Assembly (NCBI RefSeq): GCF_963675395.1
Contig: NZ_OY776222.1
Span: 1,054,001-1,118,000 of the forward strand
Direction: 5' to 3'
Origin: an uncultured Vibrio sp.
GTDB taxonomy: Bacteria; Pseudomonadota; Gammaproteobacteria; Enterobacterales; Vibrionaceae
DNA: 64,000 nucleotides
Shown: positions 32,738-46,700 of the stretch, one piece after another
Numbering within the stretch: the first letter of the stretch is position 1
Layout: every line of letters begins with the position of its first letter
The notes under the pieces: model-generated
What the model was told of the DNA's origin: nothing
Seen by the model: only the letters and a program-made list of their open reading frames with translations
The model's database searches: none
Program-made: the position numbers and the translations under genes

Positions 32738-33380
32738 GGACGATAAAAACTTGGCTGATGGCCTGTTAGTAAGCCTGGAACAAGCAGGATATGAGTGTTT
32801 ACATGTGGAGCGTATTGCGGACGTTGAATCGCAATGGAAGAAAGCCGATTTAGTGATTCTCGATCGCCAGTTACCTGACGGTGACTCTGTACAACATCTT
32901 CCTGAATGGAAAAATATCAAGGATGTTCCAGTAATTCTGCTGACGGCCCTTGTGACAGTAAAAGACAAAGTGGCGGGATTGGATTCAGGTGCAAACGACT
33001 ACTTGACTAAACCTTTTGCAGAGGCAGAGTTGTTTGCGCGTATTCGTGCACAATTGCGTGCTCCAGATTCCGCAGAACAAGATGGTGCAAGTTCAGACAA
33101 AGTAATCACCAAGGATTTGGAAATTGACCGCGCGACTCGTGAAGTCCTGTTCAAAGACGAGTTGATTACTCTAACGCGAACAGAGTTCGATCTACTACTG
33201 TTCTTAGCATCTAATCTAGGTCGCGTATTTACTCGAGATGAGTTACTTGATCATGTTTGGGGTTACAATCACTTCCCAACGACACGAACTGTCGACACTC
33301 ACGTACTTCAGCTACGCCAGAAACTACCTGGTTTAGAAATAGAGACACTTCGTGGTGTCGGTTACAAAATGAAAGCCTAA
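32712..33380 (+). CDS. vxrB: Response regulator VxrB (WigR), OmpR family
   Basis: 222 residues from GTG 32712, with GGAG 7 nt upstream inside vxrA. Receiver domain with DD pair (LLVEDDKN), phospho-Asp in VILDRQLPDGD and Lys in YLTKPFAE, then a winged helix of the OmpR/PhoB type (TRTEFDLLLFLASNLGRVFTRDELLDHVWGY...TRTVDTHVLQLRQKL). It activates cell-wall and virulence genes in V. cholerae. Confidence 0.95.
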   Translation: MKQTLLLVEDDKNLADGLLVSLEQAGYECLHVERIADVESQWKKADLVILDRQLPDGDSVQHLPEWKNIKDVPVILLTALVTVKDKVAGLDSGANDYLTKPFAEAELFARIRAQLRAPDSAEQDGASSDKVITKDLEIDRATREVLFKDELITLTRTEFDLLLFLASNLGRVFTRDELLDHVWGYNHFPTTRTVDTHVLQLRQKLPGLEIETLRGVGYKMKA

Positions 33381-33385
33381 GAATA

Positions 33386-34267
33386 ATGAAAATACTACTC
33401 CCTGTAGTTTTGTCATTAGTGTTAGTGAAACCAGTCCAAGCGATGGACTGGTTTCGAACTAATACGCCTCTGACTCAGGCTCATCAACACCTGCTTGAAG
33501 ATGATCTTTCAGGGATGTTCAATACATTAGTTGAACTATGGCAGACAGAACCCAGCCGTGATTTAACCTCACACTTAAACGATCTGCTTGGTCAGTCTCT
33601 GACTAAGGATTGCGGAAAGTCGCTGACGACCGTCACTTTGCCAGCCTGGATAAGTGGTGTTAACGTCATACGCCAAACAATTCAAAGTCCTGGGCGGGAT
33701 ACGTTCCGTTTAGTTGTTAAGGTAAGAGCAACCACTGAAGTGGAACAGATCACATTCAAACGTTGGGTAGATAGCTCGATTTCGGCAGACAGTTCATTTG
33801 CGATAGAAGAAACATCGCAGGGAGCTGAAATCGCGAATGAGCGTAGTTTTCTCAAACGCTATAACTTAACTGGTCAGCTGGAATCTGGATTATATCATTT
33901 AACGGTAGTCGCCAAAGATAAATCTACATATCGGACTTGGGTTATCTTGGGAGACTCCAACTCAAGTCAGTACGTTCGCTGGACTTCTAAAGAAAATTGG
34001 AAAGTTGAAAAGAGCGCACTGAGAAATCCGCATTGTCCATTGCCTCAGCTTGAAGTAGGGCTTTATGACTACATCGAAGGTCAGTATGAACAAATGTGGA
34101 AAAAAACCTATGAGTCGAATTATCCTGAGTCACTAGAACTCGCTGGTGTACCAAATGATCGTTACGTTCTCGCAGTCAGTATCAACAGTCGCCGTTGGCA
34201 AGGTGACATCATTGTTGAGCAAGCTCAAACAATAAGTCGTACTTATGACCTGTCGCAAGAAGAATAA
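33386..34267 (+). CDS. vxrC: VxrC, periplasmic DUF2861-family protein
   Basis: 293 residues from MKILLPVVLSLVLVKPVQA, a signal peptide, 5 bp after vxrB. The mature part begins MDWFRTNTPLTQAHQHLLEDD, characteristic of DUF2861 proteins that follow VxrB in Vibrio. Beta-rich C-terminal half. Function unknown; presumed to modulate signalling in the periplasm. Confidence 0.88.
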   Translation: MKILLPVVLSLVLVKPVQAMDWFRTNTPLTQAHQHLLEDDLSGMFNTLVELWQTEPSRDLTSHLNDLLGQSLTKDCGKSLTTVTLPAWISGVNVIRQTIQSPGRDTFRLVVKVRATTEVEQITFKRWVDSSISADSSFAIEETSQGAEIANERSFLKRYNLTGQLESGLYHLTVVAKDKSTYRTWVILGDSNSSQYVRWTSKENWKVEKSALRNPHCPLPQLEVGLYDYIEGQYEQMWKKTYESNYPESLELAGVPNDRYVLAVSINSRRWQGDIIVEQAQTISRTYDLSQEE

Positions 34268-34326
34268 CTAAAGAAATTACATTTGTGCCGATATAAGTTC
34301 AGGAAGAACAAAATCACAAGTGTAGT

Positions 34327-35454
34327 ATGAAAACTCAATCCAGAATATTATCAACCGTTATTACCGCATCTCTGTTTTCCAATGTAGCTTCTGCTGCCAC
34401 TTACGCTATTGAAGCTCGTAGTGATGCGATGGGCGGTGTTGGCACCGTATCTGCCAGTTACCTTACCGCGCCATTTTTTAACCCAGCTTTAGCTGCAATT
34501 TATCGCCGCAATGATGATGCGGGTATAATTGTGCCTAGCTTTGGGTTTAGCTTTGATGATCAATACGAGCTGATTGATGAAATTGACCGAATCAGTAAGC
34601 TCAATGATAGTACTGAAATTGAAAATGCGTTGGACGCTCTTGCCGTTGATAATCAAAAATTAAACTTCGATCTTGGCGGTGTCGTTGCTGTTGGTATCCC
34701 CAACAAATTTCTATCAGCAACGGTTTACGGAAAATTATACACAGAATCTTTCGTCCAACCACATATCGATACGTCTGGAGCAGAGCCGCTAGATAAAAGT
34801 TATGTGCAAGGTGTAAGTATTGGCGTCGCAGAAGCTGGTGTTTCATTAGCCAAATACACCAACTACATGGGGCAACACCTTTCTGTAGGTATCACACCGA
34901 AACTACAACGTATTTATACCTATTCATACGCGACGAGCTTTAACAACTTTGATGCAGCTGAATTACGTGAAAATGAAACAGCGGAAACCATGTTCAACTT
35001 GGATGCGGGCGGACTTTGGTTTTTTGGACCGTACCGTTTAGGCATTGCGGCAAAAAACTTAATCGGAAGAGATGTAGATACTAAATCGTTCCAGTATGAC
35101 GGTGATCCTATCCAGTCTTATGAATATAGCATGAGACCGATTTACACCATTGGTGCAGGCATCGTTGCAGATTATTTTACTATGAGTGTCGACTACGACT
35201 TAAATGAAGAAAAACGCTTTTCAGCATTTGATGACAACACGCAAATGATTCGCGCAGGGGTTGAATTTGATATTTTACGGCAAATGGCGCTTAGAGCGGG
35301 GTATATGAAGAACTTAGCTCGAAGTAATGACGACGGAACGATCACAGCGGGAGTAGGGCTGTCGCCACTAAACTTATTTGAACTCGATGTCGCTGCTCGT
35401 TATACCAATGAAAACGCAATGGGAGCGTCAATTAATTTCCTTGCGACCTATTAA
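34327..35454 (+). CDS. vxrD: VxrD, TraF-like outer-membrane/beta-barrel protein
   Basis: 375 residues. Signal peptide ends SNVASAATYA. The ARSDAMGGVGTVSASYLTAPFFNPALA block, followed by repeated beta strands (GIAAKNLIG, MALRAGYMKNLARS, GASINFLATY), is typical of the family annotated as conjugal transfer TraF in Vibrio and of FadL/PorV-like barrels. It is the fourth gene of the vxr operon in V. cholerae order. Conjugation is not implied. Confidence 0.85.
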   Translation: MKTQSRILSTVITASLFSNVASAATYAIEARSDAMGGVGTVSASYLTAPFFNPALAAIYRRNDDAGIIVPSFGFSFDDQYELIDEIDRISKLNDSTEIENALDALAVDNQKLNFDLGGVVAVGIPNKFLSATVYGKLYTESFVQPHIDTSGAEPLDKSYVQGVSIGVAEAGVSLAKYTNYMGQHLSVGITPKLQRIYTYSYATSFNNFDAAELRENETAETMFNLDAGGLWFFGPYRLGIAAKNLIGRDVDTKSFQYDGDPIQSYEYSMRPIYTIGAGIVADYFTMSVDYDLNEEKRFSAFDDNTQMIRAGVEFDILRQMALRAGYMKNLARSNDDGTITAGVGLSPLNLFELDVAARYTNENAMGASINFLATY

Positions 35455-35470
35455 GCGAATGGTTATAGTC

Positions 35471-35497
35471 AGCTCCTCAAAATGAGGAGCTTTTTTT
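35471..35497 (+). terminator. Intrinsic terminator abutting and masking the vxrE start
   Basis: A 9-bp perfect stem AGCTCCTCA/TGAGGAGCT with a 3-nt loop is followed by T up to 35497, and the ATG of the next gene is at 35498. The 3' arm contains GAGGAG (35484-35489), the only ribosome-binding site for that gene, so the hairpin would both terminate transcription and hide the site. Confidence 0.88.
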
Positions 35498-35656
35498 ATG
35501 TTTGATGATCTACCCCCTCTATCCCATGAAGCACAACAGCAAGCCGTAGAAAAGATTCAAGAGTTAATGTCCCACGGCACAAGTACGGCTGAAGCAATAA
35601 AAATTGTTGCTGAGCAGATCCGCGCTGAATACGCAGAGAAACAGCAACAAAGCTAA
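35498..35656 (+). CDS. vxrE: VxrE, YoaH/UPF0181 family small protein
   Basis: 52 residues, [27 protein letters not shown] followed by [17 protein letters not shown]. This is the YoaH family, found as the last gene of the vxr operon. Its start codon directly follows the terminator T-run and its ribosome-binding site lies in the hairpin. Cytoplasmic; role unknown. The gene is below common length cut-offs, so it is easily missed. Confidence 0.9.
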
Positions 35657-35680
35657 CAATCAAGTAAAAGAGAAACCAAG

Positions 35681-35711
35681 AAGCAGGGCACTGAAATGCT
35701 CTGCTTTTTTT
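35681..35711 (+). terminator. Rho-independent terminator after vxrE
   Basis: AAGCAG/CTGCTT outer stem with an inner GCA/TGC pairing and seven T. Confidence 0.75.
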
Positions 35712-35752
35712 GTGCCTGGCGTATTAGCAAGACGCTAGGGCGCGAAAGATTC

Positions 35753-35765
35753 GTGACATTGTCAC
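35753..35765. promoter_or_regulatory. matS site (MatP binding)
   Basis: GTGACATTGTCAC is a perfect matS consensus match in the intergenic region after vxrE, 3.7 kb left of dif. Confidence 0.88.
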
Positions 35766-35921
35766 TCAGAATAAACCACAAATGAGCAGATAACATAAAA
35801 CCCAAAGCTATAAATGTCAGGTAAAATTTTACCAATCTAATTTTAATAAGGATGTCTAGGAAGTAAATAAGCCAATGACTAGCCAGTAAATATAAAATAT
35901 AATGTTTATTTACAATGAGTT

Positions 35922-36188
35922 ATGTTAGATGATTTATCTTTCGTGATCAAATTTTCTGATCTTGATGTAATTAACTTACACCAAGAAGAAAGCGACGATA
36001 ACCGAATAGTCATTTATGCTAAAATAATTATTTTGCTACGTTGTCACATTATTTTTGTCAGATTGAATGAGCGTAACTACAAAAGGTTTGTTAACAGTAA
36101 GCACTTGCTCTTTTTAGTGTGCCTAGCTTTCAATGAGGGGGACGTTCAAGTTGAAAAGATTAATGAAGATTTCGATATTTTGGAGTAA
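35922..36188 (+). CDS. Possible hypothetical protein
   Basis: An 88-codon frame begins ATG TTA GAT GAT with no good ribosome-binding site. Its composition (LDDLSFVIKFSDLDVINLH, then an Ile/Leu-rich stretch) is not clearly that of a known family. It fills an otherwise empty 600-bp gap between vxrE and the stress protein. It may be spurious. Confidence 0.3.
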   Translation: MLDDLSFVIKFSDLDVINLHQEESDDNRIVIYAKIIILLRCHIIFVRLNERNYKRFVNSKHLLFLVCLAFNEGDVQVEKINEDFDILE

Positions 36189-36216
36189 TGACTACTTTGA
36201 ATTGGCTTGATTGAAC

Positions 36217-36235
36217 TAGACTTAATCTAAGTCTA
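36217..36235. promoter_or_regulatory. Perfect inverted repeat upstream of the stress-protein gene
   Basis: TAGACTTA and TAAGTCTA are perfect complements separated by ATC. The dyad ends 24 bp before the start codon at 36260, the position expected for an operator. The protein that binds it is unknown. Confidence 0.55.
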
Positions 36236-36259
36236 TGAAAACTAATCGGGAGAAAAGTA

Positions 36260-36652
36260 ATGAGCTATAAGCATATATTAGTCGCGGTTGATTTATCTGA
36301 TTCTAGCAAAATGGTTATCGATAAAGCGATTAGTCAGGCAACAGATCCCAGCTGCAAGCTCTCTTTTGTGTACGTAGATGTCGATAGAGTTGTATTAGAA
36401 CCGAAAGAAGAACAGGAATACAACAGAAAGATAAAAGCGCTTGCATCGGAATGTAAGTATCCTGTTTCTGATACGATGGTTGTCATTGGTGATCTTCACA
36501 TTAAACTGAAAGGTATAGTCAAACAGGAGGGCATTGATTTAGTTGTTTGCGGTCATCATCACAACTTATTGAGTCGTTTTTTTTCCTCAGTGCCAAAACT
36601 CGCCAATGCAGTAGAAGCCGATTTATTGGTTGTGTACCTTCATGACCAATAA
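36260..36652 (+). CDS. Universal stress protein (UspA family)
   Basis: 130 residues. N-terminal HILVAVDLSDSSKMVIDKA and the ATP-type loop in the GHHHNLLSRFFSSVPKLANAVEADLLVV region. The G-x2-G-x9-G(S/T) loop is imperfect (GHHHNLLSRFFSS), suggesting UspA-like rather than strong ATP-binding function. GGGAG precedes the start. Its last codons are partly duplicated at 37232-37273. Confidence 0.88.
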   Translation: MSYKHILVAVDLSDSSKMVIDKAISQATDPSCKLSFVYVDVDRVVLEPKEEQEYNRKIKALASECKYPVSDTMVVIGDLHIKLKGIVKQEGIDLVVCGHHHNLLSRFFSSVPKLANAVEADLLVVYLHDQ

Positions 36653-36665
36653 CAAAGTCATAAAC

Positions 36666-36690
36666 GCCGAGCTAGGTAAGCTCGGCTCTT
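36666..36690 (+). terminator. Terminator hairpin after the stress-protein gene
   Basis: GCCGAGCT/AGCTCGGC stem with a 5-nt loop; the T tail is weak. Confidence 0.6.
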
Positions 36691-36727
36691 AAGTACTCGT
36701 ATTATAATTGCTTTCGCTATGGCGGAG

Positions 36728-36949
36728 CTAGCGAGAAATACTTGGTTTAATTCTGGTCTTTTTAGTTAAGATATCAGCCGATTCCGCATTTGACTCCATA
36801 TCAAAATGTACGTTGACTTGAACGCCTTCTCGTTCAAATGTCACATCATCAAAATCGGTCATCGCGATCTTAAATCCGTTTCTAGCAAAAAGGCCTGTAA
36901 CCATGGTCCGTTGTTTTATTTGTAGAGCTGACACTAATAGTTCATCCAT
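36728..36949 (-). CDS. Small protein of unknown function, copy A
   Basis: 73 residues: MDELLVSALQIKQRTMVTG, then RNGFKIAMTDFDDVTFEREG, then VQVNVHFDMESNAESADIL. AAGGAG lies 5-10 nt before the ATG, so it is a real gene. 57 of its first 61 residues equal those of copy B at 37339-37548; the C-termini differ. No family was recognised. No signal peptide. It is convergent with the stress-protein gene and close to dif. Confidence 0.72.
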   Translation of the reverse strand: MDELLVSALQIKQRTMVTGLFARNGFKIAMTDFDDVTFEREGVQVNVHFDMESNAESADILTKKTRIKPSISR

Positions 36950-37231
36950 GGTAATTCTCCTTATGAGTTGTGGGGGAATCCAACAAACATAGCTCTTATT
37001 TAATATGAAAGCAATTTAATAAATTTCTATGACAAACCGGTTTCGAGCGCATACTCTTCAAGTATCTTCGAGCGTCTTAAAACGACCCTTTATTTATTAA
37101 TAGCTTAATAGTATATGGCATTTTATGTGACATAAACCAAGCTATCGCTCGTGTCGGATCTTAGGATAGACATTAATTGTTACAAATTGTCGAACTTTGC
37201 ATGACGCAATAAACAAGAAACTGACAAAGGA
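36950..37231. other. Intergenic segment between duplicated modules
   Basis: AT-rich sequence with no gene seen. The unit following it begins at 37232 with a remnant of the stress-protein 3' end. Confidence 0.4.
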
Positions 37232-37273
37232 GTAGAAGCCGATTTATTGGTTTTGTACCTTTATGACGACTAG
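37232..37273 (+). pseudogene. Duplicated 3' end of the universal stress protein gene
   Basis: Thirteen codons and a stop read VEADLLVLYLYDD, matching the end of the intact protein, VEADLLVVYLHDQ. Nothing upstream continues the homology. This shows that the left boundary of a segmental duplication falls inside the stress-protein gene. Confidence 0.85.
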
Positions 37274-37278
37274 GATCC

Positions 37279-37312
37279 AAAAAGCCGAACTCGTGGAGAG
37301 CGGCTTTTTTGG
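37279..37312 (+). terminator. Duplicated terminator-like hairpin
   Basis: AAAAGCCG/CGGCTTTT stem over a 13-nt loop with a run of T. It occupies the place equivalent to the hairpin after the intact stress-protein gene. Confidence 0.65.
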
Positions 37313-37338
37313 TTTTATCTTTAGACTAGTAGAGGGAG

Positions 37339-37548
37339 CTAACGAGAAAGACTTGGTATATGGTTCAAAACATCAGCCGATTCCGCATTCGACTCCATAT
37401 CAAAATGTACGTTGACTTGAACGCCTTCTCGTTCAAATGTCACATCATCAAAATCGGTCATCGCAATCTTAAATCCGTTTCTCGCGAAAAATCCAGTTAC
37501 CATTGTTCTCTGTTTTATTTGTAATGCAGATTCAAGTAGCTTATCCAT
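37339..37548 (-). CDS. Small protein of unknown function, copy B
   Basis: 69 residues, paralogue of the gene at 36728-36949 with changes at four of the first 61 positions and a different tail (NHIPSLSR). AAGGA precedes the ATG. Protein-level conservation against a more diverged flank suggests that both copies are kept by selection. Confidence 0.7.
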   Translation of the reverse strand: MDKLLESALQIKQRTMVTGFFARNGFKIAMTDFDDVTFEREGVQVNVHFDMESNAESADVLNHIPSLSR

Positions 37549-37893
37549 AGTACTAATCCTTATTATTTATAGGGGAATAGAGTAAAGGTAGTACTTCAGA
37601 GTGATAAGTTCAATTGATGATGGTTCCAAAAACCGAAACACTCATTTGGACTATTTCTCAGATCGTCCTTGCTAATGCTTATCCGGCCAGATTTTGTAGT
37701 CTTTAACGGGTTGATAAACACGAGACTTTGTAGGAGAAAAATAACTGTGGTTTTATCGAATGATCTCTAGGACTGTCGCCTTAAATTGGCTTGGATAACA
37801 TCGGTTGATGTCCTCAAACGAATTGGTTTCCATAAGTATAAGAGGACATTTTAAAATAGCTCATACCGTACAATTCTAAATAGCTCTTACACC
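37549..37893. other. Gene-free stretch between copy B and the IS
   Basis: No gene seen. Near its right end, AGGACATTTT occurs at 37842-37851 and again inside the direct repeat, and resembles the IS tip; it could be a trace of earlier insertions. Confidence 0.4.
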
Positions 37894-37928
37894 TTAGGAC
37901 ATTTTCGCTTTGTGCTTACACCCTTTGT
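37894..37928 (+). repeat. Left copy of 35-bp direct repeat flanking the IS
   Basis: Perfectly identical to 39413-39447 and begins TTAGGACATTTTCGC. It immediately precedes the left inverted repeat of the IS. It is compatible with a long target-site duplication, as made by IS1202-type elements (reported about 24-29 bp). Confidence 0.88.
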
Positions 37929-39412
37929 TATTCCCACTTTAAAATGTCCTATTGTCAGCAAAGTAGAAATGTCCGGTTAGATAAGTTGAGCAAGTAGGAG
38001 AGTCAACGTTTATTGGTACTGGCTTTGAAGGTCTCAGGGTTGATTAATACCGGGTTGATGATTCGCAACTGCTCCTGGATCGCCCGTTGTTGAGCCCGTC
38101 GTTTTGGGGCACTTTTGCTGCGTGTACGTTTCTGTTGTTGCTCGAATTCTTCTTGTTGCTGTTGGGCAAATTTTAAAACTTGTCCTAACCGTTTGTTGTC
38201 GACGATTTGAGTCTGTTGAACGTGCTCAAGCTTATCAAAGGTTTTGAAACGTAGCTTGCGGTGGCCGTAAAGAATGGCGATGTCGCCGTTTGGGTAGTCC
38301 AATACTTTGACGTTCTCATGCACCAGTCGGGCGTTTTCTTCCGTATTTTCAATTAAGTAAACCACTTTATCGTACTGAAAGGTCAACGCGTTGGAGAGCT
38401 TACGAGTTTCCTGCCAACTAAAGATATCGTTGAGTTCTTCGGGGGTTTCCCGAACTTTGCGGTGCATGTCTTTTGGATAGTGCGCCGGTTTGGCGAAGCG
38501 TCGGTTAAAATCAGCGATGAAGTAGGGAAGCCAGACATTGGCTTGTTCCATATTATCAATACCTTGCAGACGCATTTCTTTCACTAAGCGATCCTGTAAC
38601 GTTTGATTGGCTCGCTCGACACGGCCTTTGGCCTGCGAGCTGTTGGCACAAATCAGCTCTATACCCAGTTCGCGTAATATACGCCCATACTGAGTCTGGC
38701 CAACTTGCTTGTGTTTTTCTTGGTTGACCCGAAATATCGAGTGCTTATCACTATAGAACGCCACCGGTTTCCCATGCTCATTGAGGTATTCTCGCGTTGC
38801 AATCATATAGTCGAAGGCGGATTCGGTCTCGCTAAAACGCAGGTTCATCAGCCGACCGGTCGCATCATAGATAAAAACCAGCAGGCAGCACTTGTCGCTG
38901 CGTCCTTCAAACCAGTCATGATGAGAGCCATCAATTTGGATGAGTTCGCCCAGGCAGTCACGGCGATAACGAGGCTGATACACACGGGGCTTACGCTGTG
39001 AATGTGGCACCCAGAGACCATCAGCAATCATCCATTGACGGAGGGTTTCAAGCGATACATTGATGTGATGTTGTTCTGTTAACTTTTCATGCGCGAACGT
39101 GGGACCAAAGTCTGGATACCGCTCAGAAAGGATGTTCAACGCCTGGGCTTTTACTTTGTCATCGATTCGATTGGATGAAGGTTTGCCTCGGTTACCGTGT
39201 GCCAAAGAAGCCGCACCGAACCTGACAAAAGATTTTATCAGCCGGGAAAGTTGCCGATAACTAATACCAAGAATTCGCGACGCATCTTGACGAGAAAGAT
39301 TACAGTGCAAGACATTTTGGATGACAGAAAATCGTTGTAGTTCGCGATCATTCATGGCTATTAGCATCCTTAAAACCTCCAAGCGAATATAGGACAAATT
39401 CACTTGGTAATA
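37929..39412 (-). mobile_element. IS1202/ISNCY-type insertion sequence inserted beside dif
   Basis: About 1484 bp between two perfect 35-bp direct repeats. The ends form imperfect inverted repeats: left TATTCCCACTTTAAAATG, right complement TATTACCAAGTGAATTTG, then TGTCCTAT in both (20 of 28 matching without gaps). One transposase fills it. An alternative reading puts the tips at TGTCC (37945 and 39420), which would leave a 27-bp direct repeat but unequal flanks. The insertion preserves an intact dif immediately to the right. Confidence 0.82.
38003..39367 (-). CDS. IS1202-group (ISNCY) transposase
   Basis: 454 residues from ATG 39367, which has GGAGG 8 nt upstream; the frame is open to a GTG inside the inverted repeat. 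N-terminal helix-turn-helix (LSRQDASRILGISYRQLSRLI). DDE residues: LIQIDGSHHDWFE, FYSDKHSIFR and AKGRVERANQTLQDRLVKE. C-terminal Gln/Lys-rich basic tail. The frame is intact, so the element may be active. Confidence 0.92.
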   Translation of the reverse strand: MLIAMNDRELQRFSVIQNVLHCNLSRQDASRILGISYRQLSRLIKSFVRFGAASLAHGNRGKPSSNRIDDKVKAQALNILSERYPDFGPTFAHEKLTEQHHINVSLETLRQWMIADGLWVPHSQRKPRVYQPRYRRDCLGELIQIDGSHHDWFEGRSDKCCLLVFIYDATGRLMNLRFSETESAFDYMIATREYLNEHGKPVAFYSDKHSIFRVNQEKHKQVGQTQYGRILRELGIELICANSSQAKGRVERANQTLQDRLVKEMRLQGIDNMEQANVWLPYFIADFNRRFAKPAHYPKDMHRKVRETPEELNDIFSWQETRKLSNALTFQYDKVVYLIENTEENARLVHENVKVLDYPNGDIAILYGHRKLRFKTFDKLEHVQQTQIVDNKRLGQVLKFAQQQQEEFEQQQKRTRSKSAPKRRAQQRAIQEQLRIINPVLINPETFKASTNKR

Positions 39413-39447
39413 TTAGGACATTTTCGCTTTGTGCTTACACCCTTTGT
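39413..39447 (+). repeat. Right copy of 35-bp direct repeat, overlapping dif
   Basis: Identical to 37894-37928. Its last three bases (39445-39447) are the first three of the dif XerC arm. Confidence 0.88.
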
Positions 39448-39472
39448 GCGCATTATATGTGTTATGTTAAAT
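39445..39472. other. dif: dif site (XerC/XerD chromosome dimer resolution)
   Basis: XerC arm TGTGCGCATTA, 6-bp centre TATGTG, XerD arm TTATGTTAAAT. The XerD arm equals that of E. coli and V. cholerae, and the XerC arm differs from V. cholerae dif only at the first base. This is where XerCD, activated by FtsK, resolve chromosome dimers. Gene context fits the dif of chromosome 2. Marks the replication terminus. Confidence 0.93.
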
Positions 39473-39740
39473 ATGTTGGGTTTTAAGCTAAGTTCATAAC
39501 TATGCCTAAATCAACTACTTACCTTCGACTTTGACCACTTGCTTATTCATAGTGATGGGTTTCAGATAACTTCATAAGTTAACAGTTATGAGTTTTTGTT
39601 AAGTTCATAAGTAATGTGCATTTAACAATATTTCATTTACCATAAAATAGCTAATATCGATCTATCAATCTGCGATTGCTCAATCTTCAATTAGCTGATA
39701 GTAAAAACCTGATTACAGTACGACGGTTGTAAAATAGAGA
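39473..39740. other. Intergenic region right of dif with AAGTTCATAA repeats
   Basis: No gene seen. AAGTTCATAA occurs at about 39490 and 39601, and an inverted version AACTTCATAAGTT at about 39569. Possible terminus-linked binding sites or chance in AT-rich DNA. Confidence 0.35.
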
Positions 39741-39770
39741 TAAAAAAAGCGTCTGTATCGACGCTTTTAT
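39741..39770 (-). terminator. Terminator for the yciH operon (bidirectional)
   Basis: AAAAGCGTC/GACGCTTTT stem with 6-nt loop, flanked by A7 on the left, giving T7 on the minus strand. Confidence 0.85.
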
Positions 39771-39783
39771 TCGTTCTGTTTGC

Positions 39784-40095
39784 TTATCCGCCAGCCAGCT
39801 TAACGGTCAAGCCTTTGTTCTCCAGGTGTGCTTTTATCTTATCTCGAGCATCACCTTGAATTTCTATGTTGCCGTCTTTCACTGAACCGCCGCAGCCACA
39901 AACTTTCTTGAGTTCTGCTGCAAGCAGTTTTAGTGGTGCGTCTTCGAGATCTAATCCAGTGACGATACAAACGCCTTTGCCTTTACGGCCTTTAGTTTGG
40001 CGTTGAACACGCACGATGCCGTCACCCTTAGGACGAGCAATTTTCTCTTCTTCCGGTTTTATTCGGCCGGTTTCCGTTGAATATACTAAGGTCAT
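39784..40095 (-). CDS. yciH: SUI1/YciH-family translation factor
   Basis: 103 residues. The eIF1/SUI1 fold is seen in VRVQRQTKGRKGKGVCIVTGLDL, KKVCGCGGSVKDGNIEIQGD and IKAHLENKGLTVKLAGG. It is thought to affect start-codon fidelity. It begins 4 bp after the upstream gene's stop and lacks its own clear ribosome-binding site, implying translational coupling. Confidence 0.93.
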   Translation of the reverse strand: MTLVYSTETGRIKPEEEKIARPKGDGIVRVQRQTKGRKGKGVCIVTGLDLEDAPLKLLAAELKKVCGCGGSVKDGNIEIQGDARDKIKAHLENKGLTVKLAGG

Positions 40096-40099
40096 ACTG

Positions 40100-40480
40100 T
40101 TATTTCTTGTGTTGTTGGGTTTGCAACGCTTTTTTCTTCGCGACTAAATAAGCTTCGATATGACGCTGAATAGCCGTTTTACTGCCTTTAAGTAGCTTAC
40201 CATTAAACATGCAATACCACGTATTTGGCTCGCCAGAGTCATTCTTTAAAGTATAGCCGTTAAAATCAACTGACTGTCTTCCCGCTGTGCTAGGCCTCGT
40301 CTGTGCGAGAGATGCAAACTCTTTCGGATCGATGATTGAGGCGGTATCGCACCACCAATCAATACTCTTTTTGACTGAGGTTAGATTACCTTGCAAAACG
40401 TGGCTTTTGATCTTTACTTTCCAAAGGCTCCCATCCAAACTGGATTTTAAGTTAAAGCCTCTATACGTCGCAACTGCCAT
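40100..40480 (-). CDS. Conserved hypothetical protein (DUF3319-like)
   Basis: 126 residues from MAVATYRGFNLKSSLDGSLWKVKIKSHVLQG. It contains two related segments: YRGFNLKSSLDGSLWKVKI (N-half) and FNGYTLKNDSGEPNTWYCMF (C-half), each followed by KG[NS]xTxxxxxI, so it looks like an internal duplication of about 60 residues. Basic C-terminus. Annotated as DUF3319 in Vibrio as far as I recall. Function unknown; coupled to yciH. Confidence 0.72.
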   Translation of the reverse strand: MAVATYRGFNLKSSLDGSLWKVKIKSHVLQGNLTSVKKSIDWWCDTASIIDPKEFASLAQTRPSTAGRQSVDFNGYTLKNDSGEPNTWYCMFNGKLLKGSKTAIQRHIEAYLVAKKKALQTQQHKK

Positions 40481-40596
40481 ACCAATGCCCCATTTTTGTA
40501 TCAATTTCAGTGGACTCAGAATGTTTAATGAGCATCCTTAGCATCAGATGCTCTGCATAAGTACTTCTAACATAATCTGTTGTTAAGTAACGTTAA

Positions 40597-41586
40597 TTAC
40601 ACTGCACTATTGATACAGCCTTCAAGAAACTCGTGGAATTTGTGGCCATTGTTTTGAAGCATTTTCGGGAACATGGAGATTGGTGTCATACCTGGGAACG
40701 TGTTCACTTCATTTAGGTAAATCTCACCATCTTCGGTCAAGAAGAAATCAATGCGAGACAAATGACGAAGATTCATCTGTTTAAATACGGTTTCTGACTC
40801 TCGCTTGATCGTCTCTATCTGCTCTGGAGTAAGGCCCTTCGCTTCAACTTCTGTCAATGAATGGCTGGCGCTGCTGTATTTCTCATCGTAAGAATAGAAA
40901 GTACCGTCAGGTGCGATCACCTCTCCTGGTTTACTAACATAGAGCTCGCCGTTCATTTCATATGCAGCAACTTCCAGTTCTCTAGGCTTAACTGACTTTT
41001 CGACTAGCACTTGGTCAGAGAAGCCAAAAGCAGCGTTAACCGCATCAGAAAGAGCTTCTTTTTCCATGACACTGTAACATCCTACTGAAGAACCTTGCCT
41101 TGCGGCTTTGACGAACACTTTTCCCCATTTATTAAACGCTTGTTGCGCTTGAAAATGAGCCTGTTCATTATTTTTGGTTAGGAATAAGTATGGTGTATTT
41201 GGTATACCGAGCGCGTCGTACCAAAGCTTTGATGTGATTTTGTTGAAGCTGTTGCTGCTCGCTTCTGGTCCACAGCCGAGATAAGGAATACCTGAAATTT
41301 CAAACAGTGATTGAATGTCACCCGTTTCACCAGGAAAACCATGAATGCAAGGTACGATAAAGTCGATTACCAGATTAGACTCGTTAGAGCATAAGCTTTT
41401 GGTATTGAGATCCAAGTAAACCAATTCGCCTTGGTCGGTCAACCAACCTTCATTTTTGATTTCTACGCGCGTTACCTTGATGTTCTCAATGAGATTCAGC
41501 TGTTGTTCGACAAAATTAGCAGACAGCAATGATATCTCGTGCTCTGAAGAGCCACCACCGCATAATAGAAGAATATTTTTAATCAT
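40597..41586 (-). CDS. ddl: D-alanine--D-alanine ligase
   Basis: 329 residues. ATP-grasp fold with LLCGGGSSEHEISLLSA (N-terminal D-Ala site), CIHGFPGETGDIQSLFEISGIPYLGC, the flexible KAARQGSSVGCYSV loop and metal-binding YLNEVNTFPGMTPISMFP. It joins two D-Ala for peptidoglycan. The EVNTxPGMT motif is that of D-Ala-D-Ala ligases. It stands outside the dcw cluster, as the single ddl commonly does in Vibrio. Confidence 0.95.
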   Translation of the reverse strand: MIKNILLLCGGGSSEHEISLLSANFVEQQLNLIENIKVTRVEIKNEGWLTDQGELVYLDLNTKSLCSNESNLVIDFIVPCIHGFPGETGDIQSLFEISGIPYLGCGPEASSNSFNKITSKLWYDALGIPNTPYLFLTKNNEQAHFQAQQAFNKWGKVFVKAARQGSSVGCYSVMEKEALSDAVNAAFGFSDQVLVEKSVKPRELEVAAYEMNGELYVSKPGEVIAPDGTFYSYDEKYSSASHSLTEVEAKGLTPEQIETIKRESETVFKQMNLRHLSRIDFFLTEDGEIYLNEVNTFPGMTPISMFPKMLQNNGHKFHEFLEGCINSAV

Positions 41587-41735
41587 GAATCAATCTTTCC
41601 GTGACCTACAAAAGATACTTGTTGTTATGATAACTCTTTGAGTATTGAGGTACAGTTATTTTACTGTGAGGCGTATCGTTCGGGTACGATTTGAACAAAA
41701 TAAAAAGGGAGCAATAAGCCCCCTCGTTGGTTTGG

Positions 41736-42305
41736 TCAGTTTAGCTTTTTAAGCGTTGGATATGCCGAATTTTTAATCGCGTCAATGCTTTTAACAAAAG
41801 GTTTTAGATGGCGAAATTGAGCTGGAAGTGATGAGATCGCATGTTTTGCTTCGGCACTCGTTGCGTAATCTCCGTACAAAATTGAGTACCATTTTGTACC
41901 ATTAACGACTTTGTAGTTGGCCCAAATCGGCTGCTCACTTTGCGGCAATTTGTTGGCAAACTGAGTTACTTTATCTTCACTGCCAACGGCGACAACTTGA
42001 ATGGTGTATCCGAAACGTTGAATGGCTGATTGCTCATTACTTGGTGGGATAATCTTAACTGGTTTTACCTGATCGTTTGGAGTCAGTTTTACGACCTTCT
42101 TCTCTGCTGGCTTCGATGCCGTCTTAACCACGGTTGGTGTTACGTCTTTCTCAACGACTGAATTTTTAGACGCCATAATGGGTTTTGATATGACATCTGA
42201 AGAATAATCCTCTTGAAAACTCTCTGAGGTAACATCGGTAGTGTAAGTTTCAGATGCACAAGCGGAAAGCAGAAGGGTTAAGCCGATGATTGCGGTCTTT
42301 TTCAT
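41736..42305 (-). CDS. SPOR-domain lipoprotein
   Basis: 189 residues from MKKTAIIGLTLLLSACAS, where LSAC is the lipobox. A low-complexity linker precedes a C-terminal SPOR domain (YTIQVVAVGSEDKVTQFANKLPQSEQPIWANYKVVNGTKWYSILYGDYATSAEAKHAI). SPOR domains bind denuded peptidoglycan at the division site. It may be linked to ddl on the same strand, 149 bp downstream, although no strong hairpin separates them. Confidence 0.87.
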   Translation of the reverse strand: MKKTAIIGLTLLLSACASETYTTDVTSESFQEDYSSDVISKPIMASKNSVVEKDVTPTVVKTASKPAEKKVVKLTPNDQVKPVKIIPPSNEQSAIQRFGYTIQVVAVGSEDKVTQFANKLPQSEQPIWANYKVVNGTKWYSILYGDYATSAEAKHAISSLPAQFRHLKPFVKSIDAIKNSAYPTLKKLN

Positions 42306-42549
42306 GAATAACAAACGCTCTGAATAAATATTACGATAAATCATGCCGATAGGAGGCTCGATTATCAAGCATCAAATACAATAATCTGTCTATTTGGTGT
42401 GATGAGTGACACAAACTCTACAAGCTTTGTACAGTTTTTCTCCGTTGTTTATCGCTGACATGTTTTCTCTAAGACGTATTCGTTTATGATTGTTGATATC
42501 CATACAGTAAGGCTCTCAACAATTATTGTGTTAAAGGCAAGGAATCTGC

Positions 42550-45183
42550 ATGAATAAACTACATAAGCTTTTTAAACCTGATTCGGTTGCGGTAATTGGC
42601 GCATCACCGAGAGAGTTACGCGCTGGACATGTGGTCATGCGTAACCTCCTTCAAAGTGGCTTTGGTGGTGCAATTATGCCAGTAACACCAAAGCACAAAA
42701 CTGTATTGGGCGTTATTGCATACCCAAACATCACCTCCCTGCCCTTAACCCCTGATATTGCGATTCTTTGTACTAATGCTTCTCGCAACGAAAGTCTACT
42801 AAAGGAACTGGACAAACGTGGTACTCAGTTTGCCATCGTGATCTCCGATGACGCCCAAATCATCGATGTGTCTTCACTGAATATTCGGGTGCTGGGCTCC
42901 AACAGCCTAGGAATTATTCTTCCTTGGCACAACTTTAACTGTACGTTTTCTCCCGTTGCAGCCAAGCCTGGTAAAATTGCTTTTATTTCTCAGTCCGCTG
43001 CCGTTTGCACTACTGTGTTAGATTGGGCGAACGACAAAAATATCGGCTTTTCTTCATTTATTTCCATTGGTCGAGGTCAAGATATTGACTTCGCTGATCT
43101 GCTTGATCACTTAAGCATGGACGGTCATACCGAAGCTATCTTGCTCTATGTCGATTCCATACAAGATGCTCGCCGATTCTTGTCTGCGGCTCGGGCAGCC
43201 TCGCGAAATCGCCGAATTCTGGTGCTAAAAGCAGGACGCTCGAAAGAGATGAATACGCTTGAGCAGCAAGATGGTGACACCTTAGACATCATTTACGATT
43301 CCGCAATCCGTAGAACCGGTATGTTGAGGGTGAGTAATACTCATGAGTTATTTGCTGCTGTAGAAACCCTAACACACTCTGTTCCCCTTCGCGGAGAACG
43401 GTTAGCGATAATCACAAATGGTGGTGGACCTGCTGTGATGGCGGTGGATACGCTCTTCGAACGTGGTGGAAATTTGGCGACTCTTGATGAAACCTCGACC
43501 GAGCAGTTGAGCGCCGTTCTACCACCAAACTGGCGCCAAGCGAATCCGATTGACCTTTCTGGTGATTCGACAAAAAAACGCTATGTCGATACGGTCAATG
43601 CACTTATGAATAACGATTGTGCAGACGCAATATTGATCATGCACAGTCCGTCTGCGGTATCTGACCCACTCGATACTGCGTATGATGTCATTGAAGCGAT
43701 CAAGTCTCACCCAAGACATAAGCATTTTAATATCCTGACTAACTGGTCGGGAGAACAAACGTCTCGTGAGGCGCGTCTGGCGTTTACTCAGGCAGGAATT
43801 CCGACTTATCGAACACCTGAAAGTGCAGTCGTCGCGTACATGCACCTTGTGGAATACAGAAGAAACCAAAAACAATTGATGGAAACGCCAACAACGGCAG
43901 AACCGTTGCACTCGGGAAGCATCAATTCTGCAACGGAATGGGTAAACGAACGACTACTGGATAAAAACACAGTAACACTGGACACACACCAAACTAGTCC
44001 ACTTTTTAAACTGTTTGGCTTCAATGTGCTGCCGACCTGGATCGCATCTGATGCGATAGAAGCGGTACATATGGCGGAAAATATCGGTTATCCGGTCGCG
44101 GTGAAACTTCGTTCTCCAGATATCCCACACAAATCAGACGTTCATGGTGTTGCACTTAACCTAAGAAACAGCAATGAAGTCGCGAGTGCGTCAAATTCTA
44201 TCTTAGATGCAGTTAAACTCAGCTACCCATCCGCTAACGTTCACGGTCTTCTGGTACAAGGGATGGCTAAACTCGGTAGTGCTGAAGAAATACGAATCAG
44301 TATTGCTGTGGACAAAGTGTTTGGGCCGGTGATTTTACTTGGTCAGGGCGGATCTGAATGGAATATTGCTCAAGATGCCGTGGCAGCGCTGCCTCCATTG
44401 AACATGACCCTGGCGCGTTATCTCGTCGTTGTCGCTTTGAAATCAGGTAAGATCCGCTTACAAAAGCATAAAGACGCGTTGGACATTACTGAATTGTCGA
44501 AATTCTTAGTCCGTATCTCTCAGATGGCGGTTGAGTTACCTCAAGTCCATAGACTGGATATCCATCCAGTCTTGGTGTCTGGAAACGATCTGACTATCAT
44601 TGATGCCGATTTAACCCTGACAAAATACGAAGGCGATGCGCAAACGCGTCTTGCTATCCGTCCTTTCCCTGCAGAGTTTGTTGAAACTGTCACTCTACGA
44701 GATGGTCAACCTGTCTTACTTCGCCCAATCTTACCCGAAGATGAACCGCTACATGCTCAGTTCATCAATAGTGTCTCCAGAGAAGACCTCTATAAGCGAT
44801 TTTTCTCCGAAGTTGGTGAGTTCAACCACGAGGCGTTGGCCAACTTTACTCAAATTGATTACGACAGAGAAATGGCATTTGTTGCTGTTACATTCGATAA
44901 AAGTGGCCCATCAATTATCGGCGTCGCACGCGCCCTAATCACACCCGATAATAGCGATGCTGAGTTTGCGATTTTGATTCGCTCTGATCTAAAAGGAAAA
45001 GGGCTCGGTAAGGTGCTGATGCAAAAGATAATTAGCTATTGCCAAGTCAAAGGTACCAAGCAAATATCAGGAATGACGATGCCAACTAATCGAGGAATGT
45101 TGATGTTGGCTCAAAGCCTCGGGTTTGATATTGATGTTCAGTTTGAGGATGGCATTGCGGATATGGTCTTGCCTTTAAACTAG
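42550..45183 (+). CDS. Pat-type protein lysine acetyltransferase (acyl-CoA synthetase-like plus GNAT)
   Basis: 877 residues. N-terminal CoA-binding and succinyl-CoA-ligase-like domains (SVAVIGASPRELRAGHVVMRNLL, FISQSAAVCTTVLDWANDKNIGFSSFISIG), an ATP-grasp segment (YPVAVKLRSPDIPHKSDVHGVAL) and a GNAT domain from about residue 715 (VGVARALITPD, LIRSDLKGKGLGKVLMQKII). This is the YfiQ/PatZ layout that acetylates metabolic enzymes. AAGGAA precedes the start. Confidence 0.92.
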   Translation: MNKLHKLFKPDSVAVIGASPRELRAGHVVMRNLLQSGFGGAIMPVTPKHKTVLGVIAYPNITSLPLTPDIAILCTNASRNESLLKELDKRGTQFAIVISDDAQIIDVSSLNIRVLGSNSLGIILPWHNFNCTFSPVAAKPGKIAFISQSAAVCTTVLDWANDKNIGFSSFISIGRGQDIDFADLLDHLSMDGHTEAILLYVDSIQDARRFLSAARAASRNRRILVLKAGRSKEMNTLEQQDGDTLDIIYDSAIRRTGMLRVSNTHELFAAVETLTHSVPLRGERLAIITNGGGPAVMAVDTLFERGGNLATLDETSTEQLSAVLPPNWRQANPIDLSGDSTKKRYVDTVNALMNNDCADAILIMHSPSAVSDPLDTAYDVIEAIKSHPRHKHFNILTNWSGEQTSREARLAFTQAGIPTYRTPESAVVAYMHLVEYRRNQKQLMETPTTAEPLHSGSINSATEWVNERLLDKNTVTLDTHQTSPLFKLFGFNVLPTWIASDAIEAVHMAENIGYPVAVKLRSPDIPHKSDVHGVALNLRNSNEVASASNSILDAVKLSYPSANVHGLLVQGMAKLGSAEEIRISIAVDKVFGPVILLGQGGSEWNIAQDAVAALPPLNMTLARYLVVVALKSGKIRLQKHKDALDITELSKFLVRISQMAVELPQVHRLDIHPVLVSGNDLTIIDADLTLTKYEGDAQTRLAIRPFPAEFVETVTLRDGQPVLLRPILPEDEPLHAQFINSVSREDLYKRFFSEVGEFNHEALANFTQIDYDREMAFVAVTFDKSGPSIIGVARALITPDNSDAEFAILIRSDLKGKGLGKVLMQKIISYCQVKGTKQISGMTMPTNRGMLMLAQSLGFDIDVQFEDGIADMVLPLN
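42737..42744 (-). promoter_or_regulatory. Candidate KOPS (FtsK-orienting) octamer
   Basis: CCCTGCCC on the plus strand is GGGCAGGG on the minus strand, matching GGGNAGGG. It points toward dif from the right, as expected. Only one clear octamer was noticed by eye, so this could be chance. Confidence 0.35.
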
Positions 45184-45185
45184 TA

Positions 45186-45244
45186 AGAAAGCCCAGTAGT
45201 GTACGGCCTCTATGTTAAGTAGAGCCGATACCTGCTGGGCTTTA
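45186..45244. terminator. Long hairpin terminator between convergent genes
   Basis: AAAGCCCAG at 45187 pairs with CTGGGCTTT near 45243, with an inner CTCTA/TAGAG stem. It serves both flanking genes. Confidence 0.7.
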
Positions 45245-45276
45245 TTCGCTTGGGTAATGTAAAATCGGCCTTCAGA

Positions 45277-45289
45277 GTGACAGCGTCAC
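45277..45289. promoter_or_regulatory. matS site (MatP binding)
   Basis: GTGACAGCGTCAC, a perfect consensus match overlapping the stop codon region of the LysR gene, 5.8 kb right of dif. Confidence 0.85.
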
Positions 45290-46176
45290 TTTAACGCCCA
45301 ATTTTTCTTCAAATATTGGATACACCAGGACTTAGCCTCTCCCATTGTGTTTCGGCGCCACGCGAGAATGATGTCCATTGGTAATGGCTCCGTACCCTTG
45401 ATTAGCTTGAGTTCGCCACTATCAATCAGTGGCAGAGCGATTTGGCTTGGTAGTGTTCCGATTCCTAACCCAGCTATGAGTGCATCAACCTTCGCTGTAA
45501 AATTGGTGACCGTTAGTCTTGGTTGCTTTTGTATAATATTCATCGATAGTGCTGGTTGTTCGCGCGCAGTGTCTGCGATCGCAATAATGCGGTACTTTTC
45601 TCTTGCTTCTTCATCAAAATCACCACCACTGCGTTTATGCACATAGTGACTCGCCGCGGCAACCCAGAGCATGGTCATCTTACCGATTTTTTCTGATTTT
45701 ACTTCTTGCGGTAGTGTGTCCAGTGATGGGCAAATGAGTAGATCGGATCGTCCAGTGTTGAGTGATTCCCAACTTCCTGCCAGAATTTCTTCTTGCAGTC
45801 TGACTCGGGTCGAACTGACTTCAGAGAGTGCATCTACCATCGGGAAAAAATTAGAAACGGGAATAATCCCATCGAATGCGACAGTGATATCTAATTCCCA
45901 TCCATTGGCTAAGACCGTCGCATCGTTTACTAGTTTCTCACTGGCTTTTAAAATATCGCGCCCACGTTCAAGGATAAGCTTCCCGGCTTCGGTAAAGTGA
46001 GCCTTGTGACCAGAACGGTCGAAAATAATGATATCTAAGTCTTGCTCAAGTTTTTGAATTTGGTAGCTAAGTGACGAAGGTGCTCTGTCTAATTCATTCG
46101 CTGCTGCAGCAAAACTGCCTCGTCGGTCTATTGCATCCAGGATATGGAGTGCTTCTAAAGTAATCGGACTGTGCAC
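45286..46176 (-). CDS. LysR-family transcriptional regulator
   Basis: 296 residues from GTG 46176 with GGAAGG upstream. N-terminal winged helix-turn-helix (EALHILDAIDRRGSFAAAANELDRAPSSLSYQIQKLEQDL), effector domain following. Close in style to AllS/PunR-type regulators. No divergent operon partner nearby; target unknown. Confidence 0.88.
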   Translation of the reverse strand: MHSPITLEALHILDAIDRRGSFAAAANELDRAPSSLSYQIQKLEQDLDIIIFDRSGHKAHFTEAGKLILERGRDILKASEKLVNDATVLANGWELDITVAFDGIIPVSNFFPMVDALSEVSSTRVRLQEEILAGSWESLNTGRSDLLICPSLDTLPQEVKSEKIGKMTMLWVAAASHYVHKRSGGDFDEEAREKYRIIAIADTAREQPALSMNIIQKQPRLTVTNFTAKVDALIAGLGIGTLPSQIALPLIDSGELKLIKGTEPLPMDIILAWRRNTMGEAKSWCIQYLKKNWALK

Positions 46177-46502: not shown

Positions 46503-46577
46503 TTACTGTTGTGCCATCTCTTTTTTCACCATTACAGCTGCTGCTACGATGAAAGCGATGATTAGACCGAGTTCCAT
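46503..46577 (-). CDS. Putative 24-residue single-span membrane protein
   Basis: The frame ATG GAA CTC GGT ... CAG TAA translates as MELGLIIAFIVAAAVM followed by VKKEMAQQ: a short hydrophobic helix then a basic tail, as in small inner-membrane peptides of enterobacteria. AGGG lies 9 nt upstream. It sits alone between two hairpins. No conservation test was possible, so the call is tentative. Confidence 0.5.
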   Translation of the reverse strand: MELGLIIAFIVAAAVMVKKEMAQQ

Positions 46578-46700
46578 GAACTACTACCCTAGTGATTATG
46601 AGAAATAAAAGGACAAAACTTAAAATCGCGCATAGTTTAACACGTCTAAGGTTCGTTGCTACCTTTTAACCTCAAATTTACGATTTTTACGATTAAGATC

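What the first reader, a model, noticed from the sequence alone, without database searches (positions are those of the whole stretch)
39445..39472. Replication terminus: a canonical dif site inside the window
The XerC arm (TGTGCGCATTA), 6-bp centre and XerD arm (TTATGTTAAAT) fit the Vibrio dif pattern. Surrounding gene content (vxr, nrdDG, pntAB, mod) matches chromosome 2 of V. cholerae, so this is probably dif2. It identifies the window as a terminus, which conditions the interpretation of every nearby insertion and duplication.
Basis: partly seen in the sequence, partly recalled or inferred. Interest (0 to 1): 0.8.

Follow-up and report, generated by a model that had tools for sequence, protein, structure and literature searches.

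The report
Chromosome-2 dif site stacked with jumping genes
The window does hold the terminus site where copies of the smaller chromosome of a Vibrio are separated, and right beside it lie three layers of jumping genes of a kind that homes to this exact spot, apparently one landing after another.

Summary
The dif site is real, at exactly 39445-39472: the only dif on the 1.57-Mb chromosome, where GC skew and KOPS polarity switch. Five bp from the XerC arm sits an intact 1514-bp IS1202-family (ISAjo2-type) insertion sequence with a perfect 5-bp duplication; behind it lie a 27-bp stub of the same IS and a relic of a divergent one. A near-identical copy sits 5 bp from the other chromosome's dif; no other full-length copy was found. 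Dif-hunting by this family is published for Acinetobacter and enterobacteria. Not found in my searches: Vibrio dif-hunters, stacking of different ISs at one slot (so apparently no target immunity), and displacement by dif-integrating phages (8 of 8 displaced copies have phage genes between). A published 'filamentous-phage transposase' of V. cyclitrophicus is probably such a relic. Guidance by XerC/XerD remains inference.

The parts
39445..39472 (+). dif2: XerC arm TGTGCGCATTA, centre TATGTG, XerD arm TTATGTTAAAT
   Evidence: skew and KOPS switch
39440..39444 (+). 5-bp target duplication CCCTT, dif-proximal copy, between the IS and the XerC arm
37926..39439 (-). Layer 1: intact 1514-bp IS1202-family (ISAjo2-type) insertion sequence, ends TGT...ACA, imperfect terminal repeat 17 of 26 (counted by hand)
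38003..39355 (-). Transposase gene, 450 aa; D142, D203, E247 and Q254 (E+7) invariant in an alignment of 13; predicted fold closest to IstA and TnsB
   Evidence: NF033594 transpos_ISNCY_2 E 1.5e-149
37921..37925 (+). 5-bp target duplication CCCTT, distal copy
37894..37920 (-). Layer 2: 27-bp stub, identical to the dif-proximal end of the layer-1 IS
37892..37896 (+). CCTTA (TAAGG on the IS strand), apparent 5-bp slot of layer 3, overlapping the stub-2 end at a presumed deletion junction; the same 5 bp separate dif2 from a similar IS end in genome G183
37730..37891 (-). Layer 3: relic of a divergent ISAjo2-type element, TGT end at 37891; 91% to L243 (Vibrionaceae MAG) over 37730-37888
37643..37729 (-). 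Possible continuation of layer 3: stop-ridden frame with RVYQP- and GRSEK-like segments seen by eye; similarity to the flank in G097 chromosome 2 ends at 37642
   Evidence: inference
42737..42744 (-). KOPS motif, reverse orientation, the only one in the window, on the XerD side of dif
21741..59150 (.). Six matS-like motifs (GTGACRNYGTCAC) starting at 21741, 25747, 35753, 45277, 54309, 59138
   Evidence: motif recalled, not from a call
39784..40095 (-). SUI1-family gene, first gene on the XerD side of dif

Best explanation
39445-39472 is dif2, the dimer-resolution site of the secondary chromosome. Its XerC-side flank is the landing slot of ISAjo2-type (IS1202-family) insertion sequences: a TnsB/IstA-like DDE transposase inserts the element, with the end nearest the transposase start facing dif, 5 bp from the XerC arm and duplicates those 5 bp. 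SHOWN: the site, the intact IS with perfect 5-bp duplication, two older layers behind it, and the same IS at dif1. Also shown: in related genomes the full-length copies found sit on dif, dif-like or phage-hybrid dif sites, and different ISs lie one behind another at one slot. INFERRED: insertion leaves dif intact and a fresh slot next to it, so new copies land between dif and the previous copy (no target immunity); older copies are pushed outward and decay from their distal end; phages that integrate at dif push earlier copies outward in the same way. INFERRED, weaker: the transposase recognises XerC, or XerCD, bound at the site rather than naked sequence.
For: dif. IS identity: (NF033594, 498 bits, cut-off 250), invariant D142/D203/E247 and Q254, IstA and TnsB as top fold matches. 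Only two full-length copies in the genome, one per dif, both 5 bp from the XerC arm; a third match is a 33%-identical, different transposase. Census: the search listed 39 full-length or nearly full-length copies in 19 of 227 genomes (two have an internal stop), and all 39 were fetched. 25 are at an 18/18 dif at exactly 5 bp and 1 at 6 bp; 1 is the second layer of a stack; 7 are at prophage-hybrid sites; 5 at degenerate dif-like sites. 20 of 39 have a 5/5 duplication. Fixed-offset pattern: IS end 5 bp from dif 103 times (68 exact) in 76 of 227 genomes, reversed-pattern control 0; about 485 dif cores in all, hand-summed; exact matches expected by chance 1.6e-4. Stacks: 13 of 56 dif-plus-transposase places (one contig counted twice); dif-proximal unit full or nearly full length in 13 of 13, second unit starts at aa 1 in 13 of 13 and is truncated in 11. 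Displaced copies: 8 of 8 on the XerC side facing dif, 8 of 8 with phage genes between (5 filamentous, 3 with a phrog_8536 major head protein).
Against: Duplications are imperfect at many sites: of the 25 copies at perfect dif, 14 have 5/5, 1 has 4/5, 8 have 2-3/5 and 2 had no readable distal end; the script took the best-matching candidate distal end, which leans towards a match. The dif1 copy in this genome has GAGCC/GAGAT (3/5). Flank rearrangement or exchange between copies must then be invoked. The spacing is not always 5: L147 and L264 have 6 bp, L131 4 bp from a site with a 7-bp centre. Stub 2 is only 27 bp. Layer-3 junction bases (TAAGG) differ from AAGGG in layers 1-2, so an unbroken history in this window is not proven. 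The census search scored at most 7 candidates per genome (13 of the 45 genomes with matches had more) and used E 1e-60, so unlisted copies could lie elsewhere. Transposition and XerCD dependence are not shown by sequence. Transposase model confidence is moderate (pLDDT 73, pTM 0.50).
Confidence: 0.87

Rival explanations
1. The IS is not hunting dif itself but is carried there by dif-integrating phages: it inserts beside the phage attP, is delivered with the phage, and remains when the phage is lost.
For: 18 Vibrio phage records (the 17 shown are all from V. cyclitrophicus) match an IS1202-type transposase, in the rows shown at one end of the record. IS copies often sit at the outer end of a prophage. 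The four records inspected have three different 5-bp slots (GAGCT, TAGGC twice, GAGTA), more than two dif sites of one unchanged host relic would give.
Against: The same IS end (95-98% identical over 1010 bp) borders phages of two unrelated realms whose adjacent 1.3 kb is 26-27% identical ungapped, i.e. random; a shared truncated IS is hard to explain as cargo of both. 25 of 39 full copies sit directly at an ordinary dif. Five copies lie on degenerate dif-like sites with perfect 5-bp duplications, 86 kb or more from a listed dif in four cases (the fifth, L163, was matched to its own degenerate site).
Confidence: 0.1
2. The repeated ends and layers are tandem duplications or unequal crossing-over of one insertion, not repeated insertions.
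For: In L152 two identical full copies share TGGAG at every junction; in the window layers 1 and 2 are the same IS with the same AAGGG.
Against: Several stacks combine clearly different elements: L146-L148 (99% to the G088 type over 70-80% to the window type), L153, L216, L220, L239. In G115 the same two-layer order occurs on three replicons with replicon-specific junctions CAATT and AAAAA (5/5) and GATTT (read by eye; irregular, the script scored it 2/5). Layer 3 in the window is a divergent element.
Confidence: 0.12
3. The transposase recognises dif-like DNA sequence directly, with no role for bound XerC/XerD.
For: Off-target copies sit on sequences that resemble dif (13-15 of 18 positions) away from the terminus; P of 13 or more at random positions 0.00016, n=6250.
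Against: Those five sites keep the XerD arm best (8-11 of 11) although the IS lands on the XerC side, where the XerC core is at 4-5 of 7; and 7 of 8 prophage-hybrid sites with an altered XerD arm or longer centre keep the 5-bp spacing from an intact XerC core. Both are easier to see as recognition of a protein complex. Neither is decisive, because hybrid sites may have formed after the insertion.
Confidence: 0.35
4. An ordinary dif site with an IS nearby by chance.
For: PMC2731167 reports 14.2% of 161 dif sites associated with insertion sequences, transposases or integrases (passage).
Against: 5-bp offset and one orientation at 103 places with reversed control 0; both dif sites of this genome hit and no other full-length copy.
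Confidence: 0.01

Closest known systems
ISAjo2-type insertion sequences of the IS1202 family (Harmer, Pong and Hall 2023, PMC10132070; abstract and sections 11, 14-17, 19, 20 read)
   Different: The two Vibrio members listed there (ISVbsp4, ISVisp7) are 16-bp-duplication elements, a group for which no dif targeting was found. Here: Vibrio and Photobacterium members at both chromosomal dif sites and plasmid dif sites, stacked layers, prophage displacement, genus-wide relics. In the sections read and the term search of its main text ('tandem' 0, 'remnant' 0) I saw no stacking described.
Vibrio cholerae dif2 (sequence from PMC2731167, passages; biology from PMC5357621, passages)
   Same: Secondary-chromosome terminus, 11+6+11 layout, identical XerD arm, KOPS-directed.
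   Different: Centre TATGTG instead of CGTGCG; first two XerC-arm bases differ; XerC flank made of ISs.
Xer-exploiting phages at Vibrio dif: filamentous and tailless prophages (PMC5357621, PMC11630473; passages)
   Same: Share the same dock and, with the ISs, build layered arrays on the XerC side.
   Different: Filamentous phages use host Xer recombinases; the IS carries its own DDE transposase.
Tn7/CAST TnsB and IS21 IstA transposases
   Different: The IS has one sense ORF only, no TnsA, TnsC, TnsD or IstB; stacking argues against Tn7-like target immunity (that immunity is recalled, not from a call).

Membership tests
Chromosomal dif site | 28-bp 11+6+11 site with conserved XerD arm | tested here: met
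   XerD arm identical to V. cholerae dif1/dif2
Chromosomal dif site | One site per chromosome | tested here: met
   one on each contig with up to 3 mismatches; a weak further match with a shorter pattern at C1:444868
Chromosomal dif site | At the GC-skew inversion, with converging KOPS | tested here: met
   (51% sample of C1)
Chromosomal dif site | XerCD/FtsK recombination | not testable with these tools
   no assay
IS1202 family, ISAjo2 type | Transposase of the family with DDE and Q at E+7 | tested here: met
   NF033594; alignment
IS1202 family, ISAjo2 type | Ends 5'-TGT/ACA-3', imperfect TIR, subterminal repeat | tested here: met
   sequence; TIR 17 of 26 and subterminal TGTCC repeats by eye
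IS1202 family, ISAjo2 type | 5-bp target duplication | tested here: met
   AAGGG/AAGGG in the window; the dif1 copy 3/5 only
[quoted passage not shown]
IS1202 family, ISAjo2 type | TnsB-like fold | tested here: inconclusive
   moderate-confidence model; IstA and TnsB tie at the top
IS1202 family, ISAjo2 type | Active transposition | not testable with these tools
   two near-identical copies on different replicons suggest recent activity only

The most novel reading that the evidence does not exclude
A single-gene transposon uses a host recombinase complex (XerC, or XerC/XerD, bound at dif) as its guide, with no TnsC/TnsD-like partner and no target immunity. The dock is therefore re-used again and again: each dif in the cell, on chromosomes and megaplasmids, can become a stratified record in which successive ISs and dif-integrating phages are layered newest-next-to-dif, while dif itself stays intact. 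Near-identical ISs at dif1 and dif2 would also give homologous recombination a terminus-to-terminus route for chromosome fusion.
Probability: 0.45. Interest if true: 0.72.

Novelty: new variant of a known kind. Interest (0 to 1): 0.55.

Why it matters
The dif site itself is ordinary. Its XerC flank shows that dif-hunting ISs are at home in Vibrio, can occupy every dif in a cell, and can land repeatedly in one slot. That makes how they recognise dif directly testable, offers a relative-dating method for phage and IS invasions at chromosome termini, and bears on prophage boundaries: a 'phage transposase' in published V. cyclitrophicus prophages is probably a dif-side IS relic. It also warns that gene gain beside dif can be targeted, not random.

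Tried and rejected
Rejected: chance IS near dif; a second better dif; phage cargo as the general explanation; tandem duplication as the general explanation. Led nowhere: phmmer of the transposase against PDB sequences, 0 matches; exact dif+IS pattern in viral contigs, 0 matches; the first end-finding script had a wrong spacer and read no ends, corrected. A possible older IS behind the dif1 copy (GAGAT then TGTAAAGTATG) was looked at and left undecided. In one search I compared 50 typed transposase rows (of 76) with 62 typed dif rows; the dif rows left out were 3-mismatch ones. In one search, of 125 copies with an N-terminus, 100 had a readable end: 45 perfect dif, 1 near-perfect, 12 stacked, 18 with intact XerC core but altered XerD arm or centre, 24 labelled weak. 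The weak class includes misread second layers, 6-bp offsets and 7-bp centres. Two contigs occur twice in that set (L134=L222, L135=L218). In one search, 63 copies of 71 named loci were scored: 20 had an 18/18 dif, 16 of them Photobacterium and 4 Vibrio; Pantoea latae scored 17. The Morganella, Photorhabdus, Xenorhabdus, Paracoccus and Croceibacterium copies scored 14 or less with this Vibrio-type pattern, so nothing is claimed for them. 16 of 1260 control windows from the same loci also reached 18, presumably by overlapping the dif itself. Not in print as far as searched: stacking, Vibrio dif-hunters and prophage displacement, searches in an open-access library only. No long-read or population data were examined.

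Full report
WHAT IS THERE. The 28-mer TGTGCGCATTA-TATGTG-TTATGTTAAAT is at 39445-39472. The window is C1:1054001-1118000 of a two-contig genome (C1 1,572,029 bp, C2 3,193,355 bp). The only other dif found with up to three mismatches is on C2 at 295156-295183. GC skew in 40 samples of C1 turns from positive to negative between 1.10 and 1.12 Mb (dif at 1.093 Mb), and in 20 samples of C2 between 260 and 285 kb (dif at 295 kb). Within the window cumulative G-C peaks at 38530. KOPS run 8:0 on one arm and 3:15 on the other. Six matS-like motifs lie in the window; in 40 C1 samples such motifs occur in 6, all between 0.92 and 1.22 Mb (motif recalled). pntA, pntB, vxrA and nrdD are present. The dif2 reading holds.

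WHAT TOUCHES IT. ORF 38003-39355 (minus strand, 450 aa) is an ISNCY/IS1202-type transposase (NF033594). Reading both ends gives an IS of 1514 bp, 37926-39439, beginning TGT and ending ACA. It is flanked by CCCTT on both sides and separated from the XerC arm by exactly those 5 bp. The 35-bp direct repeat that one search reported (37894-37928 and 39413-39447) is explained: the distal copy is the dif-proximal end of an older, identical IS (27 bp, 37894-37920) plus the duplicated 5 bp and the TGT of the next end. Behind it, 37730-37891 is a relic of a divergent element, 91% identical to a Vibrionaceae MAG locus (L243) over 159 bp. Similarity to the flank in G097 chromosome 2 ends at 37642. So at least 1.7 kb of the XerC flank is IS-derived, in three layers.

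THE OTHER CHROMOSOME. The genome search listed two full-length copies: this one and C2:295273-296610; a third match is a different, 33%-identical transposase. The C2 copy is 98-99% identical at the protein level and sits 5 bp from the dif of the large chromosome in the same orientation. Its distal 5 bp match only 3 of 5.

CENSUS. In 227 genomes of the genus, 45 have transposase matches at E 1e-60 or better (76 matches), 39 of the matches full or nearly full length, in 19 genomes. That search scored at most 7 candidates per genome, and 13 of the 45 genomes had more. I fetched all 39 (and the window). Twenty-five are at a perfect (18/18) dif at exactly 5 bp; one (L147) is at 6 bp. One is the second full copy of a stack (L152), seven are at the outer end of a prophage integrated at dif, and five are at degenerate dif-like sites, all five with perfect duplications (L141, L143, L144, L145, L163). 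Twenty of 39 have a 5/5 duplication. Relics are commoner than intact copies: the IS end is found 5 bp from dif 103 times (68 exact, 35 with 1-3 mismatches, a few of the latter possibly chance) in 76 of 227 genomes, with none for the reversed pattern. This compares with about 485 dif cores (hand sum) and a chance expectation of 1.6e-4 exact matches. In a second set of 71 loci with record titles, 20 of 63 scored copies have a perfect dif beside them, 16 in Photobacterium and 4 in Vibrio. Copies from Morganella, Photorhabdus, Xenorhabdus and alphaproteobacteria did not fit the Vibrio-type pattern.

STACKS. Of 56 dif sites with a transposase within 7 kb on the XerC side (one contig counted twice), 13 have a second unit beginning at residue 1, 1594-1688 bp from dif. 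The dif-proximal unit is full or nearly full length in all 13; the second is truncated at its distal end in 11 and full in L152 and L216. The window is not among the 13, because its stubs are too short for a protein search. In L152 dif, two full copies and a third stub are all separated by TGGAG. In G115, whose third contig matches V. pelagius plasmid NZ_AP025505.1 in length and IS coordinates, both chromosomes and the 395-kb plasmid carry the same two-layer order. The junctions are replicon-specific: CAATT and AAAAA are exact, GATTT on chromosome 2 is irregular and read by eye. That is most simply six insertions in two waves.

PROPHAGE DISPLACEMENT. Eight copies (seven full, one fragment) lie 8-20 kb from a dif. 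All eight are on the XerC side and face it. Seven of eight keep an intact XerC core at the 5-bp offset beside an altered XerD arm or longer centre; the eighth (L131) has a 7-bp centre and a 4-bp offset. All eight intervals hold phage genes: filamentous in five (L131, L135, L139, L155, and L164 for the copy in L126), and a phrog_8536 major head protein, which I take to be PM2-like, in three (L132, L140, L156). This is the geometry expected if Xer-integrating phages enter between dif and an earlier IS. In G039 chromosome 2 a new IS appears then to have landed at the re-formed dif.

A PUBLISHED READING TO RE-EXAMINE. PMC11630473 (passages) describes tailless phages integrated into a filamentous prophage of V. 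[quoted passage not shown] Deposited records carry an IS1202-type transposase at one end. In the tailless record of strain 10N.261.45.F7 and two filamentous records this end is 95-98% identical over 1010 bp, while the adjacent 1.3 kb is random (26-27%). In the four records inspected the IS starts 5 bp from an XerC arm. I read it as a dif-side IS relic, not a phage gene. Against a single shared relic: the four records show three different 5-bp slots. Four of 18 matching Vibrio records were inspected.

MECHANISM. The transposase has invariant D142, D203, E247 and Q254, and its model matches IstA and TnsB best, tied (pLDDT 73). Harmer et al. propose direct contact with XerC. My data fit but do not prove it: the 5-bp ruler is mostly kept from the XerC arm even where the XerD arm or centre has changed, and the five pseudo-sites keep the XerD arm better than the XerC core, as if XerD must load the complex. 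Repeated insertion in one slot argues against target immunity.

NOVELTY. dif-hunting by this family is known (PMC10132070). The Vibrio/Photobacterium members, occupation of all dif sites of a cell, stacking and prophage displacement were not found in searches, which cover an open-access library only.

Noticed in passing
L289, L290, L291, L292 (PQ189321, PQ189311, PQ189326, PQ189335): Deposited V. cyclitrophicus filamentous and tailless prophage records end in an IS1202-type transposase annotated 'hypothetical protein'; probably a dif-side IS relic inside the drawn phage border.
   Followed up: partly
G015, G039, G043, G046, G081, G140, G193, G206, G208, G212 (listing): A dif-like sequence GCGAATTATATGTTTAATGTTAATT recurs 10-14 kb from a dif (37 kb in G015), in the opposite orientation to it; possibly just part of a conserved gene.
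   Followed up: no
G015, G039, G081, G140, G193, G206, G212: GCTCGTTAACTCNNTTATGTTAACT, another recurrent dif-like sequence away from dif.
   Followed up: no
G140 C1 (3.57 Mb) and C2 (1.87 Mb): The dif centres look swapped: TGTACG on the large contig and TGTATA on the small one, the reverse of G039, G046, G193 and others; both carry the IS. Possible exchange between termini.
   Followed up: no
G212 C3 and C4; G021 C3, C4: Extra dif-core matches on further contigs (G212 has 10 in all), reminiscent of plasmid dif modules.
   Followed up: no
L156 (G039 C2), second IS copy: Its proximal 5 bp (TAGGA) equal those of the IS at the dif of C1 while its distal 5 bp differ: possible exchange between the ISs at dif1 and dif2.
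   Followed up: no
L196 (G183 C2): IS fragment beside a hybrid site, about 3.7 kb of other DNA, IS stub, then dif2: another mixed stack.
   Followed up: partly
window 36604-37596: Direct repeats of 230 and 48 nt at a spacing of about 600-620 bp, at and beyond the universal-stress-protein gene at 36260-36649: looks like a tandem gene duplication next to the IS stack.
   Followed up: no
G088 C3 (V. maritimus 374-kb plasmid NZ_CP090440.1 by length and coordinates): Four transposase matches on one plasmid: one at its dif, one on a degenerate dif-like site (L141), two fragments.
   Followed up: partly
plasmids collection: 4835 plasmid records, mostly Klebsiella and Escherichia, encode relatives at E 1e-60; their distance to dif-like sites was not examined.
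   Followed up: no
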